Of a stretch of DNA of 43,374 nucleotides, positions 1 to 17,160 are shown piece by piece (position 1 is the first letter of the stretch; every line of letters begins with the position of its first letter). The position numbers and the translations under genes are program-made. Under the pieces are notes generated by a model that ran no database searches, was not told where the DNA came from, and saw only the letters and a program-made list of their open reading frames with translations. The DNA comes from Cardinium endosymbiont of Culicoides punctatus. Lineage in GTDB: Bacteria > Bacteroidota > Bacteroidia > Cytophagales > Amoebophilaceae. The stretch lies in the NCBI RefSeq assembly GCF_004354815.1, contig NZ_QWJI01000055.1, forward strand, positions 1 to 43,374, written 5' to 3'.

Positions 1-130
1 TTTAAAATCAGGTTTTGGCTTATTTTATGATTTTTTGTGTAAAAATATCATGAGACAACCCTAAAAATATAAACATTTATGTAATAAATAGAGAAAATAA
101 AAAATCTCAAATTTTTGTGCGAAATGTCGG
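1..130. repeat. Truncated end of a MITE/IS-like element
   Basis: AT-rich non-coding DNA whose right boundary (111-130) resembles, in degenerate form, the terminal inverted repeat of the element at 1625-1972. It abuts the IS66 fragment exactly where the transposase sequence, known from the second copy, breaks off. The other end lies outside the window, so size and type are unknown. No gene is visible here. Confidence 0.5.
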
Positions 131-451
131 TTTAATAATGGTAGTAGCTGGAATATGAGCTATAGATTGGTGACATGATCGGCACGCAACCACTTCGTGA
201 ATAATTTTCGCATCAGGAGTATCTATTTGTTCAAGCGTATTGCCCTGGTGACCTTGTTGACCACCTGTCGGACGCACGCCAGGTGTACGCAAAGACTGAG
301 GAGTAGGCTTTTTAGACAAGCCATCACTAGAGGGTGGTTTCGAGCTATTCCTGCTGTCCAGCCCTAAACGACGTTCTAGAACAGCTAAACGTTGCCGTAA
401 AAGCTTATTTTCTGATTCCAGTTCCGCTATCCGTTTATCTTTTGCATCCAT
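107..451 (-). pseudogene. IS66 transposase, N-terminal fragment
   Basis: N-terminal piece of an IS66 (TnpC-type) transposase. It shows the leading coiled-coil/leucine-zipper segment (residues 1-35), the linker around SRNSSKPPSSDG that is typical of the family, a GGQ(Q/K)GHQG motif, and the first part of the zinc-binding segment (CRSCHQS). About 104 residues are genuine; the last residues (PTFRTKI) are read from the inserted neighbouring element. The catalytic DDE domain is absent, so this is non-functional. Confidence 0.85.
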
Positions 452-546
452 ATCACATATCTAACAAATGGTACTCAATAGTAAGAAAAAAATTTTGATA
501 TACCTGAAAAGTCACGAAAATTCAAAAAAGGTACCTGGGGAGTTAC
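131..546 (-). mobile_element. IS66-family fragment Z (5' end plus N-terminal transposase)
   Basis: Fragment of an IS66-type element on the minus strand. It runs from the terminal repeat (GTAACTCCCCAGGTACC on the minus strand, ending at 546) through a 95-bp leader to codon ~104 of the transposase, where another element interrupts it at about 130. The leader at 452-546 is identical to that at 1172-1266. The 8 bases just outside the end (547-554, CTAGAACC) are the same target as at 1267-1274 read on the other strand. The copy differs from fragment Y at several residues, so it is not simply a fresh duplication. Confidence 0.8.
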
Positions 547-1171
547 CTAGAACCTCTTGTTGCAATGGGGCAACCGTATGAGAAAATGCCTCATTCATTT
601 TAACAAGTGTAGCTGTTGCAATACGCAATCCAAATACATCTTGGAAAGTTTGTTGCAAGCGATCTTCTGGAATAAATTGCTGATTTAACAAATAAACGGC
701 TAACGCTTTAACACGTGATCCATACTGTACAGGAGCTGTAACATCTTTAGGAAATGCAGCTACTGTTTGATGACCACATGAACATATTTTAATCTCAGCT
801 TGATGTTCTGTTACCAGAATCTTAGGAGCAGGGATATCGAAGACTTGGCGCTTAATAATGGTAGTAGCTGGAATATGGGCTATAGATTGGTGACATGATC
901 GGCACTCAACCACTTCGTGAATAATTTTCGCATCAGGAGTATCTATTTGTTCAAGCGTATTGCCCTGGTGACCTTTTTGACCACCAGTAGCATGTTGACC
1001 AGGAGTACGCAAAGATTGAGGAGTAGGCTTTTTAGACAAGCCATCACTAGAGGGTGGTTTCGAGCTATTCCTGCTATCCAGCCCTAAACGGCGTTCTAGA
1101 ACAGCTAAACGTTGCCGCAAAAGCTTATTTTCTGATTCCAGTTCCGCTATCCGTTTATCTTTTGCATCCAT
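547..1171 (-). pseudogene. IS66 transposase, N-terminal half
   Basis: About 208 genuine residues of an IS66 transposase: N-terminal coiled coil, SSKPPSSDG linker, zinc-binding part (CRSCHQSI ... CSCG), and the start of the central helical domain (PVQYGSRVKALAVYL, then EDRLQQTFQDVFGL). The gene breaks after QQEVL, where the end of fragment Z begins; the open frame then runs a few codons into Z and stops at 512. The missing continuation (EQLKGVAVKHVDESGFR) is exactly what the plus-strand fragment at 1267 begins with, so the two halves come from copies cut at the same codon. Confidence 0.85.
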
Positions 1172-1266
1172 ATCACATATCTAACAAATGGTACTCAATA
1201 GTAAGAAAAAAATTTTGATATACCTGAAAAGTCACGAAAATTCAAAAAAGGTACCTGGGGAGTTAC
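547..1266 (-). mobile_element. IS66-family fragment Y
   Basis: Second IS66 fragment on the minus strand. Its terminal repeat ends exactly at 1266 and its interior is cut at 547-554 by the end of fragment Z. Both junctions lie in the same octamer (CTAGAACC / GGTTCTAG) inside the transposase gene. IS66 members normally make 8-bp target duplications, so the octamer fits two successive insertions into the same site of the same element family. Confidence 0.8.
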
Positions 1267-1624
1267 GGTTCTAGAGCAACTTAAAGGTGTAGCAGTAAAA
1301 CACGTGGATGAGTCGGGCTTTCGTATCGGTGGAAAAACACAATGGCTACATGTGCTTAGCTCAAAAGAAATGACCCACTATCGGTCTAGTCCAAAACGTG
1401 GAGCTCATATAAAAGATGTACAAGGTGTTATTGTCCACGACCATTTTAAGCCTTACTTTACCATCGATAATGTTAAACATGGTTTGTGTAATGCGCATCA
1501 TTTACGAGAATTAAAGGCTTTAGAAGAAGTGGACAAAGAACCATGGGCTCCTAAAATGAGTAAACTCTTAAAGTGGTTAAGTAAGATAAAGGCCCCTCCA
1601 TTAAAAATGGTATTTACATTTTAT

Positions 1625-1972
1625 CCCACATTCCGCACCTTTTTTTAGATTCTTATTAATTAAATTAAGATCAATTGATAACATCAAAACTATTTAATAT
1701 TACTTCAAAAACAACATTTTGTAGAATATATTGTTTAATGAAACACTCATTTCATAATGAATGATTAGGTTTGCTTCCTTATTATACTAAATAAAAAGTT
1801 ACCATACAATAGTAAAGCAAAAAATTATTACTAATTAGTAGTTTCTAAAACTTATACTCTGTACAAAGTTTTACTTTGGCTATGAAAGTATATTACTATA
1901 CAATTATAAAAATTATTAGTAATCAATTATAAAATAATTGTAAGATTTGCATTTTTTGGTGCGGAATGTGGG
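1625..1972. mobile_element. MITE-like element A, 348 bp
   Basis: Non-coding AT-rich element bounded by the inverted repeat CCCACATTCCGCACC (1625-1639) and GGTGCGGAATGTGGG (1958-1972). It is flanked by a perfect 6-bp duplication TTTTAT (1619-1624 and 1973-1978). It carries no open frame of note, so it would need a transposase supplied in trans. Related ends occur near 130, at 40837 and at 42089. This accounts for the long stretch without a gene here. Confidence 0.8.
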
Positions 1973-2061
1973 TTTTATGATTACATCATCAAAGAGGGGT
2001 TGTTGTTTCACGAAAGCAAAACGGCATTGGCTGGAAGAAAACGACGACCAGGTCATAATTT

Positions 2062-2206
2062 CAGGACTTTCGCACTTTTAGTTAAAAACACTGTTTATAG
2101 ACTAGTCTATAAAATAGAGAAATGTTAATATTATTGATTATAAATACTATAAAACATGTCCATGTCTAAAAATGCAAACACAATTATCTGTTTTGCGAAA
2201 GTCCTG
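2062..2206. mobile_element. MITE-like element B, 145 bp
   Basis: Short non-coding element with inverted ends CAGGACTTTCGC (2062-2073) and GCGAAAGTCCTG (2195-2206), flanked by a perfect 5-bp duplication AATTT (2057-2061 and 2207-2211). A perfect 16-bp palindrome TATAGACTAGTCTATA lies inside (2096-2111). Its ends and target length differ from element A, so it belongs to a separate family. Excision restores IS66 codons from GHN to LLIRL. Confidence 0.8.
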
Positions 2207-2646
2207 AATTTATTAATAAGGCTACGAGATTTTAAAGATGCAGTACTCAGATTTTTAACTACACCAGAGGTGCCTTTTACAAATAATCAAGCTGAACAAG
2301 ATATTCGCATGATTAAAGTCAAACAAAAAATCTCGGGGGGATTTCGTACCCAAAAAGGGGCAGAGATGTTTTGCACTATTCGTGGATTTTTATCAACAAA
2401 ACGTAAACAAGGGACCAATTTGTTTCAGGCTATTCAACAAGTATATGCTACCGCTTAAGTGAGGCACCTGGGGAGTTACGGTTTTTTAACAAAATAATCC
2501 TAAAACTGGTGTTTTCTTAATACAAATATAACATATTTAATATTGAAAACCAAATTATTTTATGATATTGCAGGGCCGACTATTTAGAACGCAAAAACAT
2601 GATGGTGGGATTATTTTATAATGGATTAAGATTTAAATCGAACTGA

Positions 2647-4170
2647 TTACCTCCGCGAATGATTCATCGAATCATTCTTGGTGAGTAATAAATGGTATTC
2701 TTTTGATAGCGTTCTAACGGCTATAATCCATGTAATGCATATGAACAAAAACATGATAGCCAAAAATGGAGATATTTGATCTGGTTGGGCATGAGTAAAA
2801 ATAGTATAACACACGACTTGTAAGATGGCACCAGCTGATTTACCGATTTTTCCCCCTAAAATGTCAACAGAAGCTTTTCCTTTTGCACGCATTTCTTTAT
2901 CTAGAGGAATGTAAACCATTTCTTTGGTTATATCAAAAAAACAATATTTAGCTCCTTTAGCTAACACATTTTGTAAACCACCAATGGCTACAATAGCAAA
3001 TAAAATAGATATACCCATTACATGAGTTGGTAATAACTTAAAATAGTTTAGTACTACTAAAGCAAAGAACATACTTCCCATAATAAGTGTTATAATAGGT
3101 GTTCCAAGGGCTGCTCCCTTCCAGCCTAATTTTTGGGTAATAGCATTGCCTACAAATGAACATATAAGTGTAAAAATACCTGTCCAAAATAGAACCTTCC
3201 CTTGGTAAGTAATGAAAAGAGCTGGGTCTTTTCTGTAAAAAAGACTTGTTTCATGCAACCAAATTCCTTCAATTAAATTGATAACCATAGAATAAGAAAT
3301 CATTAACACACAAATTAATCTTAAATATTTAGATTGTGCAATCATTTTAAAGCTTGTCCATAATCCTAGTTTTAATTTAGATGGTACATTTTCAACTTCC
3401 TTGTCAATTTGGTGATATATAATACGTGTTTCTACATATCTATGTAAAAAGAGTACAAGAATACATAAAAGAATAACAATAGTTATAAGGGAAGCAACCT
3501 GAAGCGTTGTTCCTGTTTTATAAACACCAAGAAATGGCAATAAAAAATGGTCATTACGAGAAAAATAAACCATAATGCTACCAGAAACCAATAGATTGGC
3601 TTGTCCGAGTAGATTGAAAACAAAGTAAAATCTACTAGCCTCTTCGGTTTTTGTTATCTTATTTGCTAACTGCCAATATAATAGGGTAAAAATAATCATT
3701 GGCCATAATTCACCCATCATATAAAAAAAGACCAATATCCATTTACCCCAGATTATAAAGAACCACTTAAAATGAGGATATAACTGAACATAATTGCTAA
3801 TAGTATTCGCGCTTGGATGTAATAGTTCTTGGTTGGGAAATAAGAAAAAGCCAAATAAGCTAAAAAAAAGCAGAAAAAAAAGCATGACTCCCCTGAAGAT
3901 ATTTTCTTCTGTTGTCTTATTGCATAATATAGTGTATATAATAACGAACAAAATGCCAGCTGGCATTTCAATAAAAAGCTTAATAAAGCTCAAAGCTTCT
4001 GCCCCTATCATGGTAACAACTAAACCGTCTTTAATACCACGAATTAAGTTTTGATTAAGCAGTATAAAAAACATCATGACTGCCATGGAAAAAAACTTTG
4101 GCAACTCTCTTCTCTTAATAGGAAAAAAAAGTTCCCTCCATTTTTTTCTTGTAATGCTGGTTTCTTTCAT
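2647..4170 (-). CDS. tlc: NTT-family ATP/ADP translocase 1
   Basis: Inner-membrane nucleotide transporter of the NTT/TLC family (507 residues, the family's usual length, about 12 membrane segments). The family exchanges host ATP for bacterial ADP or imports other nucleotides. The four charged residues known to matter in plant and rickettsial NTTs are in place: Lys47 (RGIKDGL), Glu154 (GELWP), Glu301 (IEGIW) and Lys444 (KIGKSAG). The N-terminus (KKWRELFFPIKRRELPKF) is the usual basic NTT lead-in before helix 1. The closing segment IPLDKEMRAKGKASVDILGGK is characteristic. It lies just upstream of a carrier-like gene and shares the neighbourhood with a second NTT. Substrate (ATP/ADP or other NTPs) cannot be read from sequence. 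Confidence 0.93.
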   Translation of the reverse strand: MKETSITRKKWRELFFPIKRRELPKFFSMAVMMFFILLNQNLIRGIKDGLVVTMIGAEALSFIKLFIEMPAGILFVIIYTILCNKTTEENIFRGVMLFFLLFFSLFGFFLFPNQELLHPSANTISNYVQLYPHFKWFFIIWGKWILVFFYMMGELWPMIIFTLLYWQLANKITKTEEASRFYFVFNLLGQANLLVSGSIMVYFSRNDHFLLPFLGVYKTGTTLQVASLITIVILLCILVLFLHRYVETRIIYHQIDKEVENVPSKLKLGLWTSFKMIAQSKYLRLICVLMISYSMVINLIEGIWLHETSLFYRKDPALFITYQGKVLFWTGIFTLICSFVGNAITQKLGWKGAALGTPIITLIMGSMFFALVVLNYFKLLPTHVMGISILFAIVAIGGLQNVLAKGAKYCFFDITKEMVYIPLDKEMRAKGKASVDILGGKIGKSAGAILQVVCYTIFTHAQPDQISPFLAIMFLFICITWIIAVRTLSKEYHLLLTKNDSMNHSRR

Positions 4171-4393
4171 GTACTAAAGTAGTTTAGAGATATATTCATA
4201 TTAAGAATGATTGCCTATTTTGATAAAATAATTCAGAATCACCTAAATGAATAGAATTCAGTAGGGTTAATGCACATGCTTACATAAGCATTTTAAGGAA
4301 TCAACTGCTCCGTTAGTACTTCATGATGTTTTTGTATGCAATGGCTAGTTGTATATAAACTAAATTATTAATTATTCAATAGTGCACAAAAAC

Positions 4394-5158
4394 TTAGGTA
4401 GCAGTATTTCCTAATAAAAGCATTACTAGGCTGTGTGCGACCGAATAAGGAATAATTTGAATCATACGCATCGTTAAACCATTGAAAATTACACGAAAGT
4501 TTTTTTCTACTACAACATTTTGTTTAAGCCTACCTATCCAAGTCATAGGTATTTCTGCACCACAATTTTGTGTGGCAATAAGATCAAACGGCATAGTTAA
4601 AACGGATACACCAATTCCTGCTATAGAACTAACAAGTATATTCATGCCCATACCGGTCATGTTTTTTGTAATTTCATACCCTAATACAGCAGCTGAACAG
4701 GCAAGTATATTTCTCAAAAGTATTGGTGTAATAATATCTAAAATTTTTGCCTCTCGTTTCATTAGCGGTCCTTTATTAGCAGTGATCTCCCGTGCTTCAC
4801 TATATACTGTAACAACTGTTTCTACGCCACCAGCTAAAAAGCATTGCCAAACGACCAATAGGATAAAGTTCGTTATAGGAAAGTAGTTAAGAGATAAAAA
4901 ATAGAGCCATTGGGCAATTCCAAAAGCAAATGCCGCTATAAATTGTCGCAATGCGTAAATATGAGCTCCAGAGAAGAAAATCTTAAAATTTCGAATATGG
5001 ATATACTTTGTAATAATGGCAGAATATGATTCTTTCGTCTCTTGATAAACCACTTTTATAAATTGAGTAGGGGCAACTAAATAGGCAACAACCATACAGG
5101 CTATACCATGTGCAACTGGATCAAGAAATAGGCGATATAGAAGACTGTTTTGCTGCAT
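4394..5158 (-). CDS. Mitochondrial-carrier-like (SLC25-type) membrane protein
   Basis: A 254-residue membrane protein with an apparent three-fold repeat. Repeat 1 has a proline-kinked helix with P30-TQFI-K35 (compare Px[DE]xx[KR]) followed by FFSGAHIYALRQ (61-72). Repeat 2 has LAGGVETVVTVYSEA (108-122) and PILLRNILACSAAVLGYE (145-162). Repeat 3 has SSIAGIGVSVLTMPFDLIATQ (178-197) followed by FNGLTMRMIQ (225-234). The spacing from Pro to the xGxxxxxR segment is similar in repeats 1 and 3 (about 34-37 residues), as in mitochondrial carriers. That family is almost wholly eukaryotic, and Legionella LncP is the known bacterial example. Here it follows an NTT translocase gene on the same strand (223-bp gap), which fits host-metabolite exchange. 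The family call is by eye, the second repeat lacks the Pro, and the substrate is unknown. An unrelated helical membrane protein is the alternative. Confidence 0.62.
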   Translation of the reverse strand: MQQNSLLYRLFLDPVAHGIACMVVAYLVAPTQFIKVVYQETKESYSAIITKYIHIRNFKIFFSGAHIYALRQFIAAFAFGIAQWLYFLSLNYFPITNFILLVVWQCFLAGGVETVVTVYSEAREITANKGPLMKREAKILDIITPILLRNILACSAAVLGYEITKNMTGMGMNILVSSIAGIGVSVLTMPFDLIATQNCGAEIPMTWIGRLKQNVVVEKNFRVIFNGLTMRMIQIIPYSVAHSLVMLLLGNTAT

Positions 5159-5567
5159 CTTGTAAATTAAAATATAAGTATTAAAATTGATTGAACTAAA
5201 GTGACCTCATGTTTTCCCTTAAAAAAACATTATCGCTATCTTGTAAATTTTCAGATAAAGATAAAAAATGATTTTCAAATCTTTATGGTTATAAAGTAGC
5301 ATTATTAGTCCTAAGACAAATAAATTCATATATTCAGCTGCTTGCCGAAACCCTTAGTGCAAAACCAACCCAAATCTTTGAGACATGAAAAAGGTCACTA
5401 TTTAAGACCGTACGTTAGTAACGTGGCTTAAAACAAAGCAATTTACCACTTTTTATTGAAATTATCAAACAAATTACAGCTCCTTGCATTTATATGACTA
5501 AAGCTATTAACCATTATTTTCCATTAGTGATATGAATTCTAGTCTGATACCTTATAAAGGTAAAAAA
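5159..5567. other. Gene-free stretch with a short palindrome
   Basis: About 410 bases between the carrier-like gene and frr, with no credible reading frame or RNA gene. The one notable structure is a perfect 13-base palindrome ACGTTA-G-TAACGT at 5412-5424, which could be a protein-binding site. It presumably holds the promoter of the carrier-like gene, but I see no convincing promoter match. Confidence 0.4.
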
Positions 5568-6128
5568 CTATACGGTCATTATATCAGATTCCTTTAATTC
5601 TAGTAATTCATTAATTTTATTAATAAAATCATCCGTTATTTCTTGTAGTTTTTTTTCTGAGCGTTTTATTTCATCTTCTGGTATACCATCTTTTTGCATG
5701 GTTTTTAATATTTCCTTATAATCACGACGAACATTTCTAATAACGATCCTTCCTTTTTCTGCTTCATTTTTAACTAATTTAACTAGATTTTTTCGTCTTT
5801 CCTCAGAAGATGGTGGTAGGGTTACTATTACCATACGGCCATCATTTCTAGTAGAAAATCCAAGTTGACTTTCTGAAATGGCTTTCTCTATATGTGGAAT
5901 AGATTTCTGTTCCCATGGTTGGACTATTAAGGTCCGTGCGTCAGTAGCACTAATGGAGGCTAATTGATTTAATGGTGTAGGATTTCCATAGTATGTTACC
6001 ATTAATCCTTGAAGCATAGCAGGAACGGCTCTACCTGCATTTACTTTCGCAAAAGCTTCTTGTGTACAAAGGTAGGCTTTTGCCATGTTATGTTTGGCGT
6101 CATCTAAATGTTGTTGAACTACTTCCAT
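5568..6128 (-). CDS. frr: Ribosome recycling factor
   Basis: Splits post-termination ribosomes together with EF-G, releasing mRNA and subunits. At 186 residues it has full family length. The family core is clear: NAGRAVPAMLQGLMVTYYG, then PLNQLASISATDARTLIVQPW, then a second conserved block DGRMVIVTLPPSSEERRKNLVKLV, and the basic helix RIVIRNVRRDYKEILK. In many bacteria frr follows pyrH; here pyrH is far away at 26659, so the usual pair is split, as is common in rearranged symbiont genomes. It stands alone between two transport genes. Confidence 0.96.
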   Translation of the reverse strand: MEVVQQHLDDAKHNMAKAYLCTQEAFAKVNAGRAVPAMLQGLMVTYYGNPTPLNQLASISATDARTLIVQPWEQKSIPHIEKAISESQLGFSTRNDGRMVIVTLPPSSEERRKNLVKLVKNEAEKGRIVIRNVRRDYKEILKTMQKDGIPEDEIKRSEKKLQEITDDFINKINELLELKESDIMTV

Positions 6129-6321
6129 GAATAGATAAAAATTATAATATACTAAGATTGTATTAGCTCCTTACTTTTCCAAATATAACAATGCTTAACG
6201 GTATATCTATATGATTGGGAAAAATTGTCTAGTCGATTTTAAACTATTTTCTATACTTTTTAGCGGAAATCTATTCGTTCACATTGGAGTCTATCATGCA
6301 TCTATGGAATATAAGAGCCTG

Positions 6322-6354
6322 TTTTGGATTTTATTATCCATCATATAATCTTTG
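6322..6354 (+). promoter_or_regulatory. Candidate promoter of NTT translocase 2
   Basis: TTTTGG at 6322-6327 and TATAAT at 6344-6349 are separated by 16 bases, about 95 bases upstream of the likely ATG at 6448. The TTTG ... TAATCTTTG pattern also partly resembles the Bacteroidota -33/-7 consensus (TTTG, TAnnTTTG). It rests on pattern match only in AT-rich DNA. The remaining gene-free bases from 6129 to 6447 show nothing else. Confidence 0.3.
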
Positions 6355-6447
6355 TGAACAAGTTTTTTGTATCAATGCATATGGGAAACTCGTTAATATT
6401 TCTTAAATTTGGAAAGTTTGTGGAGTGAGCATTTTAAGTTTAGTATT

Positions 6448-7935
6448 ATGGAATATCCTTCAGAATCGTGGTTTAAAAAGTGGTTTAAGCTCATTTTTCC
6501 AGTAAAAAAATCTGAAGTAAAAAAGGTTTTTTTATTACTTTTCTTAAAGTTCTTAATCTCTCTTGTCTATTGCATGTTAACAACGCTCAAAGACACCGTT
6601 CTAGTTACTGCAAGTCAATCTGCCGCTGAAGTCATTCCAATTGTAAAAGGTTCTATTGTTTTTCCTATTTCTATAGCTGTTATCGTGCTATATACGAAAC
6701 TAAATAACCATTTGAAACAAGCTACCCTTTTTTATGCCACGATCCTCCTTTTTTTATCTTTAATACTGATATATAGCTTTATTTTATACCCAAATGCAGA
6801 TGCATTCAGTCCACATGCTACGGCAGATTGGCTAATTTCCTATACAGAAGGTAAATACTTACATTGGATTGCCGTATTGCGTCATTGGATACATGTTTTA
6901 TTTTTTGTTATTGCAGAACTTTGGGGACAAATTGTGTTAATGGTACTCTATTGGAGTTTTGTTAATAATGTTTGTAAAATTCATGACGCCAAGCGCTTCT
7001 ATGCCATATTTATTGCTGCGGGAGATATCGCGTTAATTGTTACGGCTCCTCTGATCTTAACATACACTAAAAAATATAGTCATGTAGACTTTTTATGCAC
7101 TGTGCAAGCTTTAGTGGGGTATATTATGTTTTTTTGTTTGGCAATTGTTTTTACCTATTGGTGGGCAAACCATGCTATTAAACTAGATGGGGTTGGAGCA
7201 AATAACTTAACTACTACACCTAAAAAGTTACGTTTATCTCTTTTGGGTAGCTTAAAACATGTTGCCTCCTCCAAATATTTGATGAATATTGCCATTATTA
7301 TGGTCTCATGTGGACTTTCTATAAATATTGTGGAGGGAACCTGGAAATCCTACTTAAAAGAAACATTCCCAAAGGCAGCAGATTATCAAAGCTTTGTTTC
7401 AGGAGTTAATTTTTGGACAGGTATCATAGCATTAATTATCTCACTCTTTTTCAGTGGTGGCATATTAAGAAAGTTTGGTTGGAGAACAGCTGCACGTATA
7501 GCACCAGTAATCATTGGTATTATGGGGTGCATCTTCTTTTTAATGAGTTATGGTAAAAATAACGTTCCCTGTCTGATAAATTGGTTAGGAGCCAGATTCA
7601 TCTTATGGATTGTTATTTTTGGCGGCATACAAAATTTAATAGCAAAATCTGTAAAATATGCTTTTTTTGATAAGACAACTCAAATAGCCTATATACCACT
7701 TGATCCAGAAACAAAGGTCAAGGGGAAAGCGGCTGTAGATGTATTAGGATCTCGTTTAGGTAAAGCAGGGTCTTCATGGATACAGATTACACTTCTAGAA
7801 CTTTTTCATACCAACAGCATTCAACCTCTTTCTGGCATATTGTTTATAATTTTACTTATTGCTATTATATTTTGGTATAGAGCTACCGATAATATTGATA
7901 AGCAACTTGCAATCTTTGAAGCGAAAGATACTTAA
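6448..7935 (+). CDS. tlc: NTT-family ATP/ADP translocase 2
   Basis: Second nucleotide transporter of the NTT/TLC family, clearly paralogous to but diverged from the one at 2647. All four key charged residues are present: Lys in TTLKDTVLVT, Glu in IAELWGQI, Glu in IVEGTWKSYL, Lys in SRLGKAGSS. The ending IPLDPETKVKGKAAVDVLGSR is typical. I chose the ATG at 6448 (MEYPSESW, 495 residues) because it starts next to the usual basic segment (FKKWFKLIFPVKKSE). An upstream TTG at 6409 would add 13 residues. Two divergent copies suggest different substrates, for example ATP/ADP exchange and general NTP uptake, but which is which cannot be told. Confidence 0.93.
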   Translation: MEYPSESWFKKWFKLIFPVKKSEVKKVFLLLFLKFLISLVYCMLTTLKDTVLVTASQSAAEVIPIVKGSIVFPISIAVIVLYTKLNNHLKQATLFYATILLFLSLILIYSFILYPNADAFSPHATADWLISYTEGKYLHWIAVLRHWIHVLFFVIAELWGQIVLMVLYWSFVNNVCKIHDAKRFYAIFIAAGDIALIVTAPLILTYTKKYSHVDFLCTVQALVGYIMFFCLAIVFTYWWANHAIKLDGVGANNLTTTPKKLRLSLLGSLKHVASSKYLMNIAIIMVSCGLSINIVEGTWKSYLKETFPKAADYQSFVSGVNFWTGIIALIISLFFSGGILRKFGWRTAARIAPVIIGIMGCIFFLMSYGKNNVPCLINWLGARFILWIVIFGGIQNLIAKSVKYAFFDKTTQIAYIPLDPETKVKGKAAVDVLGSRLGKAGSSWIQITLLELFHTNSIQPLSGILFIILLIAIIFWYRATDNIDKQLAIFEAKDT

Positions 7936-16518: not shown

Positions 16519-17160
16519 CTATACCTTATGGATCTTATAAGATCTATGCCATTTTATTTGACCATAAATACCTATGAATACGAGAACCAAATGTTGGATA
16601 CTAAGTATACTGGCACCAGTATGGTAGCATGCTATGGAAAAAGCTGCATAACGCAATAAAGCTATAAGCCATCTTTCTAACTTTTTATGTGACATAAACC
16701 ACTTTTCTACAAGGCCAAAAGATAGATTAAAAGCATCTCCACAAATAGCAAAAGAAAATTTATTCGAATCTGTAACCATCATAATGATAAATATAAATCC
16801 AAGTGCACCAAGTATACCCGTGCCTATGGCATATAAAAGCATATGATTGGATGTGCGCGTTACATATAATGGTTGTTGATGGGGTTTGCCTCTCCATTTT
16901 ATATGGGCATATACATTAAACGCTGTAGATATAATCGTATAAATTACTTTTCCATAGAGCCTTCTAACAAAATAGACCTTGATATTCATAAAAAGAATAG
17001 GATAGGTCAATATCCTACTCCAAATATTTTGACGTGCATCTAAAATATGCGCAAAAATAGATAAGACAACTAAAGTTATTTCCCATAGCAATTTTTTATC
17101 ATTGCATAAAAGCAATTGACTATAATCGGCTATAGTGGCCCACAGTTGATCCAGATTCAT
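16519..17160 (-). CDS. pnuC: PnuC-like nicotinamide riboside/mononucleotide transporter
   Basis: 213-residue membrane protein with about seven helices and an internal duplication. FNVYAHIKWRGK in the first half and GIYGQIKWHRSYK at the end match the N-x-Y-G-x-x-x-W type motif of PnuC. LVEKWFMSHKKLERWLIALLRY resembles the QxLxxKKxxxxW segment between. PnuC imports NAD precursors by facilitated diffusion, coupled to phosphorylation in the cytosol. No kinase such as NadR is in the window. In a symbiont with nucleotide translocases this suggests dependence on host NAD precursors. Specificity for NR, nicotinamide mononucleotide or a related compound is uncertain. Confidence 0.75.
   Translation of the reverse strand: MNLDQLWATIADYSQLLLCNDKKLLWEITLVVLSIFAHILDARQNIWSRILTYPILFMNIKVYFVRRLYGKVIYTIISTAFNVYAHIKWRGKPHQQPLYVTRTSNHMLLYAIGTGILGALGFIFIIMMVTDSNKFSFAICGDAFNLSFGLVEKWFMSHKKLERWLIALLRYAAFSIACYHTGASILSIQHLVLVFIGIYGQIKWHRSYKIHKV

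What the first reader, a model, noticed from the sequence alone, without database searches (positions are those of the whole stretch)
4394..5158. A mitochondrial-carrier-like protein in a bacterial genome, next to an ATP/ADP translocase
The 254-residue protein shows a three-repeat pattern: P-x-Q-x-x-K at 30-35 and P-F-D-L-I-A-T-Q at 190-197, each followed 34-37 residues later by an xGxxxxxR-type segment (FSGAHIYALR, FNGLTMR), with a middle repeat ending PILLRN ... GYEITK. This is the plan of SLC25 carriers, a family nearly confined to eukaryotes, with Legionella LncP as the known bacterial case. If right, this symbiont pairs an NTT translocase with a host-derived carrier type. The family call is inference by eye.
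Basis: partly seen in the sequence, partly recalled or inferred. Interest (0 to 1): 0.85.

Follow-up and report, generated by a model that had tools for sequence, protein, structure and literature searches.

The report
Mitochondrial-type carrier in a Cardinium symbiont
An insect symbiont has a gene for a small membrane carrier of the kind normally found in mitochondria, next to an ATP/ADP translocase gene in the related genomes examined; its presence in this genus was already published, but the pairing and its worn-down gates hint at a job in the bacterium's own membrane.

Summary
Right in kind, not new. The 254-aa ORF (4394-5158, minus strand) matches PF00153 Mito_carr at 36.4 bits (cut-off 22.3, E 4.5e-9), and two low-confidence AlphaFold models both rank mitochondrial carriers first. 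The genome is Cardinium cCpun. Brown et al. 2018 already reported this carrier as a core Cardinium gene and transfer candidate. Not found in print: (1) in 7 of 7 carrier-bearing genomes of the genus the next gene, same strand, is one genus-specific NTT subtype; an eighth keeps that NTT without the carrier. (2) The carrier is under purifying selection, yet most gate residues are gone: one of three matrix pairs possible, no cytoplasmic pair, contact point III is Q, recalling the 'peculiar' MTCH1/2 and SLC25A46. Best reading: an inner-membrane anion carrier working beside the NTT. Rivals: a non-transport carrier-fold protein, or an LncP-like secreted one. Host origin was not tested.

The parts
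4394..5158 (-). mitochondrial-carrier-family homologue, 254 aa
   Evidence: ORF; PF00153 36.4 bits; orthologues 60-72% identical in 6 of 7 other genomes of the genus
4925..5116 (-). repeat 1 (residues 15-78) with matrix motif P30-x-Q32-x-x-K35-x-x-x-Q39 and contact point I = R71
   Evidence: Pfam repeat match 18.3 bits; P, Q, K and R invariant in 7 of 7
4709..4726 (-). repeat 2, PILLRN (residues 145-150) with contact point II = R149-N150
   Evidence: R-N invariant in 7 of 7; aligned to G182-I183 of bovine AAC1
4427..4648 (-). repeat 3 (residues 171-244): PFDLIA motif, FNG, contact point III = Q234
   Evidence: Pfam repeat match 20.8 bits; motifs
2647..4170 (-). NTT-type ATP/ADP transporter of the genus-specific subtype, directly downstream (gap 223 nt)
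   Evidence: PF03219 464.9 bits; the same gene follows the carrier in 7 of 7 genomes; 58-69% identical in 7 of 7 other genomes of the genus, at most 35% in other genera of the family
6409..7935 (+). second, divergent NTT on the other strand; not part of the doublet
   Evidence: PF03219 438.7 bits; 33% identical to the linked NTT

Best explanation
A divergent mitochondrial-carrier-family protein that sits in the symbiont's own inner membrane, with its three positively charged loops in the bacterial cytoplasm (the side that is 'matrix' in mitochondria), and passes a small anionic metabolite across it as a partner of the NTT encoded next. The NTT exchanges host ATP for ADP; the carrier would balance what that exchange leaves over or does not bring, most plausibly phosphate or an organic anion. 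Shown here: homology, agreement of fold, conservation, gene pairing. Inferred: which membrane, the partnership, the anion class. The particular substrate is a guess.
For: Family and fold. Pairing with one NTT subtype in 7 of 7 carrier-bearing genomes, same strand, gaps 18-223 nt. That subtype is in 8 of 8 genomes of the genus; of 13 genomes in other genera of the family 12 have only NTT matches of 35% identity or less and 1 has none at E <= 1e-10. Purifying selection: dN/dS 0.070-0.243 over 21 pairs, 0.098-0.165 over the 6 pairs with dS under 1. Putative cavity residues R71, R149, N150, Q234 are invariant in 7 of 7; they align with AAC1 R79, G182-I183, R279 in both runs of a weak profile alignment. 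Charge: 12-17 K/R in the three loops of one face against 2-4 on the other, loop limits set by hand. In strain cEper1 all 62 transport proteins are reported as expressed and CAHE_0789 is one of four moderately expressed NTTs (passages of PMC5698495); that CAHE_0789 is the linked NTT is my inference from gene order.
Against: The gate networks that drive alternating access are mostly absent: only D192-K35 could form a matrix pair; the cytoplasmic motif survives only in repeat 2, and complete only in 4 of 7. Contact point III is Q, though the review calls it nearly always positive. The NTT occurs without the carrier in G001, so it does not need it. Neighbourhoods are partly shared by descent, which makes the pairing weaker evidence than independent recurrence, and no genome-wide gene-order control was run. 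No transcript or transport data for this protein were found. The charge bias fits host mitochondria as well.
Confidence: 0.5

Rival explanations
1. A carrier-fold protein that no longer transports, in the manner of the peculiar members MTCH1, MTCH2 and SLC25A46: it keeps the six-helix fold but acts as a membrane scaffold, insertase or accessory subunit, for instance of the neighbouring NTT.
For: Charged gate residues lost, prolines kept in repeats 1 and 3, the pattern the review gives for MTCH1/2 and SLC25A46. The one carrier chain found by sequence in the PDB is an MTCH2/UCP1 chimera at E 0.91.
Against: Two arginines, an asparagine and a glutamine at the contact-point positions are invariant in 7 of 7, more than a scaffold would seem to need. 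E 0.91 is not significant. Both models have low confidence (mean pLDDT 53.6), lowest in the h34 stretch among others.
Confidence: 0.27
2. A secreted protein that goes to host mitochondria, as reported for LncP of Legionella.
For: LncP sets the precedent, and Brown et al. draw the comparison. Cardinium has a phage-derived secretion system (passages of PMC12342168). A carrier fold is by nature importable by mitochondria (general knowledge).
Against: Gene pairing with an NTT, a membrane protein of the symbiont itself. Gates and contact point III differ from those of carriers that must hold a high membrane potential. Secretion signals were not examined.
Confidence: 0.15
3. A decaying remnant of an acquired gene without function.
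For: Weak middle repeat, lost gate residues, absent in one of eight genomes.
Against: Open in 7 of 7 genomes down to 60% identity; dN/dS far below 1, like the NTT next to it.
Confidence: 0.03

Closest known systems
Cardinium mitochondrial carrier protein cPpe 01095 and its orthologues (Brown et al. 2018, PMC6232779; passages read)
   Same: Very probably the same gene: a core Cardinium carrier, 66-67% identical among strains, called a horizontal-transfer candidate; best outside match Neorickettsia, at most 33% similarity
   Different: cPpe was not among the genomes I could name, so identity was not tested directly. The passages seen do not mention the NTT pairing or the lost gates
LncP of Legionella pneumophila (Dolezal et al. 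2012, PMC3252375; abstract and passages)
   Same: Mitochondrial carrier family in an intracellular bacterium; LncP carries ATP in liposomes
   Different: LncP is secreted during infection; here the gene is paired with a bacterial NTT. Sequences were not compared: LncP was not fetched
ADP/ATP carriers and UCP1 (PDB 6gci, 1okc, 8hbv)
   Same: Best structural matches of both models
   Different: Their salt-bridge motifs and positive contact point III are not kept here
MTCH1, MTCH2, SLC25A46 (PMC7611774, passage)
   Same: Prolines kept, charged network residues lost; shortened h34 as in SLC25A46
   Different: Those are eukaryotic proteins of the mitochondrial outer membrane; here contact-point residues are invariant. 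Sequences were not compared

Membership tests
Mitochondrial carrier family by descent (PF00153) | profile match above the curated cut-off | tested here: met
   Whole protein 36.4 bits against 22.3; 7 of 7 orthologues match at E <= 0.01. Single repeats in the six-frame scan stay under the cut-off, 20.8 and 18.3 bits
Mitochondrial carrier family by descent (PF00153) | six-helix carrier fold | tested here: met
   Two models without templates, both mean pLDDT 53.6. This protein: 3 best Foldseek rows are carriers, none at E <= 0.001; 11 best VIA rows carriers, Z 12.9 to 6.6, the last of them tied with unrelated rows from 6.0. Orthologue: 9 best Foldseek rows carriers, best E 4.3e-3; 11 best VIA rows carriers, Z 15.4 to 8.3, next unrelated row 6.5. 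That 7w5z_M1 and 8b6h_DS are carriers is recalled
Mitochondrial carrier family by descent (PF00153) | three tandem homologous repeats | tested here: inconclusive
   Pfam finds repeats 1 and 3; repeat-to-repeat comparison not above shuffles
Canonical SLC25 transporter | Px[DE]xx[RK] on H1, H3, H5 (matrix salt-bridge network) | tested here: not met
   P-Q-K, [GMIV]-E-[VI], P-D-[AI]: none of three complete. The register of repeat 2 is unsure: the profile alignment places it three residues further on, where the motif is no better. Motif as given in PMC12410006
Canonical SLC25 transporter | [YF][DE]xx[RK] on H2, H4, H6 (cytoplasmic network) | tested here: not met
   Only H4: Y-E-K in 4 of 7, Y-A-K in 3 of 7; no D, E, K or R in the stretches checked for H2 and H6
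Canonical SLC25 transporter | positively charged contact point III on H6 | tested here: not met
   Q234 in 7 of 7; position by alignment to AAC1 R279 (weak: probability 6.7%, P 0.0055)
Canonical SLC25 transporter | substrate transport | not testable with these tools
   needs a liposome or cell assay
LncP-type secreted carrier | delivery into the host cell and its mitochondria | not testable with these tools
   needs localisation in infected cells
Host-derived carrier (horizontal transfer from a eukaryote) | branches inside eukaryotic carriers in a tree | not tested
   no eukaryotic sequence collection at hand

The most novel reading that the evidence does not exclude
A carrier-fold protein re-tooled for a bacterial inner membrane: freed from holding a mitochondrial potential, it shed most of both salt-bridge gates and became a partner of one genus-specific NTT, acting as a uniporter, leak-tolerant anion channel or accessory subunit of that NTT.
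Probability: 0.3. Interest if true: 0.72.

Novelty: new member of a known kind. Interest (0 to 1): 0.42.

Why it matters
The best-known bacterial mitochondrial-carrier homologue, LncP, is read as a protein aimed at host mitochondria. A conserved carrier-NTT gene doublet in a symbiont that takes nucleotides from its host suggests another use: the carrier fold at work in a bacterial membrane. It would also offer a naturally gate-poor carrier for testing which parts of the SLC25 cycle are really needed.

Tried and rejected
Sequence search of the PDB with the protein alone found nothing real (1 match at E <= 10, a sulfate adenylyltransferase at E 1.9); the 7-row profile gave two matches, an MTCH2/UCP1 chimera at E 0.91 and an unrelated protein at 1.3. 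NCBIfam gave only a CysD model at E 0.11, 11.8 bits against a cut-off of 413. I take these as chance.

The viral collection gave none.

Weak hits outside the genus (E 0.007-0.14) cover at most 95 residues, several broken by stops, and were dropped. In the phylum sample 2 of 395 genomes ring at E <= 0.001: this one, under the cut-off, and G354, a 39-position match in a 69-aa frame with a stop, which is the only one over the cut-off; I take it as spurious, without following it up. A PF00153 match in G011, another genus of the family, is a separate protein: 26.4 bits, similar to P0001 over one 41-column stretch (E 3e-4 for that single comparison), found in 1 of 21 family genomes.

Internal repeats by profile comparison: negative. 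Promoter and terminator scans around the doublet: no more than shuffles (21 against a mean of 20.4; 2 against 2.2). Rfam: no match in 2400-6500. Substrate classes for contact point II (G-I for adenine nucleotides, R with Q/H/N/T for keto acids) are recalled; by that recall R149-N150 speaks against an AAC-like nucleotide site, but I do not rely on it.

That the doublet and the lost gates are not in print rests on the listings and on passages read. Supplementary files were not read, and most papers of subscription journals are not held.

Full report
What is there. The ORF at window 4394-5158 lies on the minus strand and reads 254 codons from ATG to a stop. The window's assembly has 1,137,634 bases in 57 contigs, exactly the figures given for Cardinium cCpun, the symbiont of the biting midge Culicoides punctatus (PMC6387759, passages). 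The next gene on the same strand, 223 nt further, encodes a TLC/NTT transporter (2647-4170; PF03219 464.9 bits). A second, divergent NTT lies on the other strand at 6409-7935 (438.7 bits).

Is it a mitochondrial carrier? By descent, yes. PF00153 scores 36.4 bits over a cut-off of 22.3, and 7 of 7 members of the orthologue alignment match it at E <= 0.01. Scanned in six frames, where each repeat is scored apart, repeats 3 and 1 stay below the cut-off (20.8 and 18.3 bits; E 2.6e-4 and 1.6e-3), and repeat 2 is not seen; at E <= 10 that scan also rings in 8 of 14 control genomes, none over the cut-off, and in none of 14 at E <= 0.01. Of 395 Bacteroidota genomes 2 ring at E <= 0.001: this one, and G354 with a 39-position match in a 69-aa frame with a stop, which alone passes the cut-off and which I take as spurious. 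PDB searches by sequence do not reach the carriers with any significance. A profile alignment of the 7 orthologues to four solved carriers runs collinear over 219 columns but is weak (probability 6.7%, P 0.0055; a global run gives 1.0%, P 0.024).

Fold. Two AlphaFold models, one of this protein and one of the orthologue of Cardinium sp. TP, each with four sequences and no templates, have the same low mean pLDDT of 53.6. Both put carriers first. For this protein the three best Foldseek rows are UCP1 and an ADP/ATP carrier, none at E <= 0.001, and the 11 best VIA rows are carriers with Z 12.9 to 6.6; the last of these are tied with unrelated rows, which start at 6.0, and Z 12.9 is still in the range that the tool gives for helical bundles by arrangement alone. 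For the orthologue the nine best Foldseek rows are carriers (best E 4.3e-3, none at E <= 0.001), and the 11 best VIA rows too, Z 15.4 to 8.3, with unrelated rows from 6.5. That the Tetrahymena complex IV chains among them are carriers is recalled. What counts is that carriers lead in both and cover nearly the whole chain.

Known already. Brown et al. [quoted passage not shown] PMC5977736 (passage) lists a Cardinium endosymbiont among seven bacteria with such proteins. [quoted passage not shown] So the finding is correct but not new, and LncP is not the only bacterial case.

Distribution. Of 8 genomes in the genus, this one included, 7 have the gene; the 6 others that have it are 60-72% identical to it. 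Of 13 genomes in other genera of the family none has an orthologue (the best stray match, G012, is E 0.007 with three stops); one, G011, has a separate PF00153 protein. By length against Table 1 of PMC6387759, G007 is cEper1, G005 cHgTN10 and G017 Amoebophilus asiaticus.

The doublet. In 7 of 7 carrier-bearing genomes the carrier is followed on the same strand by an orthologue of the window's NTT, with gaps of 18, 68, 68, 74, 126, 181 and 223 nt. That NTT subtype is in 8 of 8 genomes of the genus, the 7 others 58-69% identical to the window's; of the 13 genomes in other genera 12 have matches of 35% or less and 1 has none at E <= 1e-10. The surroundings differ, but not independently. The genes after the NTT (by eye rodA, nusA, infB) are shared by G001, G002, G003, G004 and G007; a murF-like gene and two more beyond the carrier are shared by the window and G007; G005 and G006 share no other gene of this neighbourhood with the rest except a frame antisense to the carrier (clusters at over 45% identity and half the length, in fetched stretches of 12-19 kb and the first 16 kb of the window; gene names by eye). 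So the doublet may partly be old gene order kept by descent, and I could not run a genome-wide control. G001 has the NTT and the rodA-nusA-infB run but no carrier and no recognisable remnant on that contig (best tblastn E 0.04 over 37 residues), and an ankyrin-repeat ORF lies in its place. In the NTT tree G001 falls with G002, G003, G004 and G007 (support 99/99), while the window, G005 and G006, which have the carrier, lie outside that group. So G001 most likely lost it, and the NTT does not depend on it.

Selection and anatomy. dN/dS for the carrier is 0.070-0.243 over all 21 pairs; in 15 of them dS is over 1, and the 6 others give 0.098-0.165. The NTT is alike: of 28 pairs 5 gave no dS, the rest 0.066-0.216. 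The gene is kept for a function. Matrix-gate motifs, Px[DE]xx[RK]xxxQ in canonical carriers (PMC12410006, passages), read P-Q-K, [GMIV]-E-[VI] and P-D-[AI] in repeats 1 to 3. The register of repeat 2 is unsure (by eye and by a non-significant match to repeat 1; would shift it by three residues), but the two pairs that involve Q32 or residue 195 are lost in any register, so only D192 with K35 could pair. The cytoplasmic motif [YF][DE]xx[RK] survives only in repeat 2, Y-E-K in 4 of 7 and Y-A-K in 3 of 7. The positions that align with contact points I, II and III of AAC1 (R79; G182-I183; R279) are R71, R149-N150 and Q234, invariant in 7 of 7. The review calls contact point III nearly always positive; here it is not. 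The review PMC7611774 (passages) names MTCH1, MTCH2 and SLC25A46 as members that keep prolines but lose the charged networks, SLC25A46 also with a short h34; the models here show little or no h34, in a stretch of low confidence.

How it may work. Invariant polar and charged residues at the cavity positions argue that something anionic is still bound. The lost gates argue against a tight, strictly coupled exchanger. The gene pairing argues that the protein serves the symbiont's own membrane beside an NTT rather than host mitochondria. Charge counts (12-17 K/R on one face, 2-4 on the other, loop limits set by hand) suit a bacterial inner membrane, but would suit mitochondria too. I therefore put about one half on an inner-membrane anion carrier working beside the NTT, about a quarter on a non-transport carrier-fold protein, and less on a secreted LncP-like protein. 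Which anion is not shown by anything here.

Not tested: origin from a host, transport, location, co-transcription.

Noticed in passing
L023:1408-2448 (G011, another genus of the family): A 346-aa PF00153 protein (26.4 bits) with a leader-like N-terminus; its first 36 residues are 53% identical to a stretch in a 430-aa frame elsewhere in G011, as if two proteins shared a secretion leader.
   Followed up: partly
L061:8326-14152 (G001): A genome of the genus that keeps the linked NTT but has no carrier; an ankyrin-repeat ORF lies in its place.
   Followed up: yes
window 4482-4886, + strand: A 134-aa frame antisense inside the carrier gene has a counterpart in G006 (46% identical); probably a shadow of the coding strand, not a gene.
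   Followed up: no
window 107-2458: Repeated transposase-like fragments at the left end (IS66-like by eye), two of them with near-identical N-termini.
   Followed up: no
window 6409-7935, + strand: Second NTT, 33% identical to the linked one; five relatives from other genomes of the genus group with it in the tree.
   Followed up: partly
window 16519-17160, - strand: A 213-aa membrane protein that looks PnuC-like by eye (recalled, not searched; ORF).
   Followed up: no
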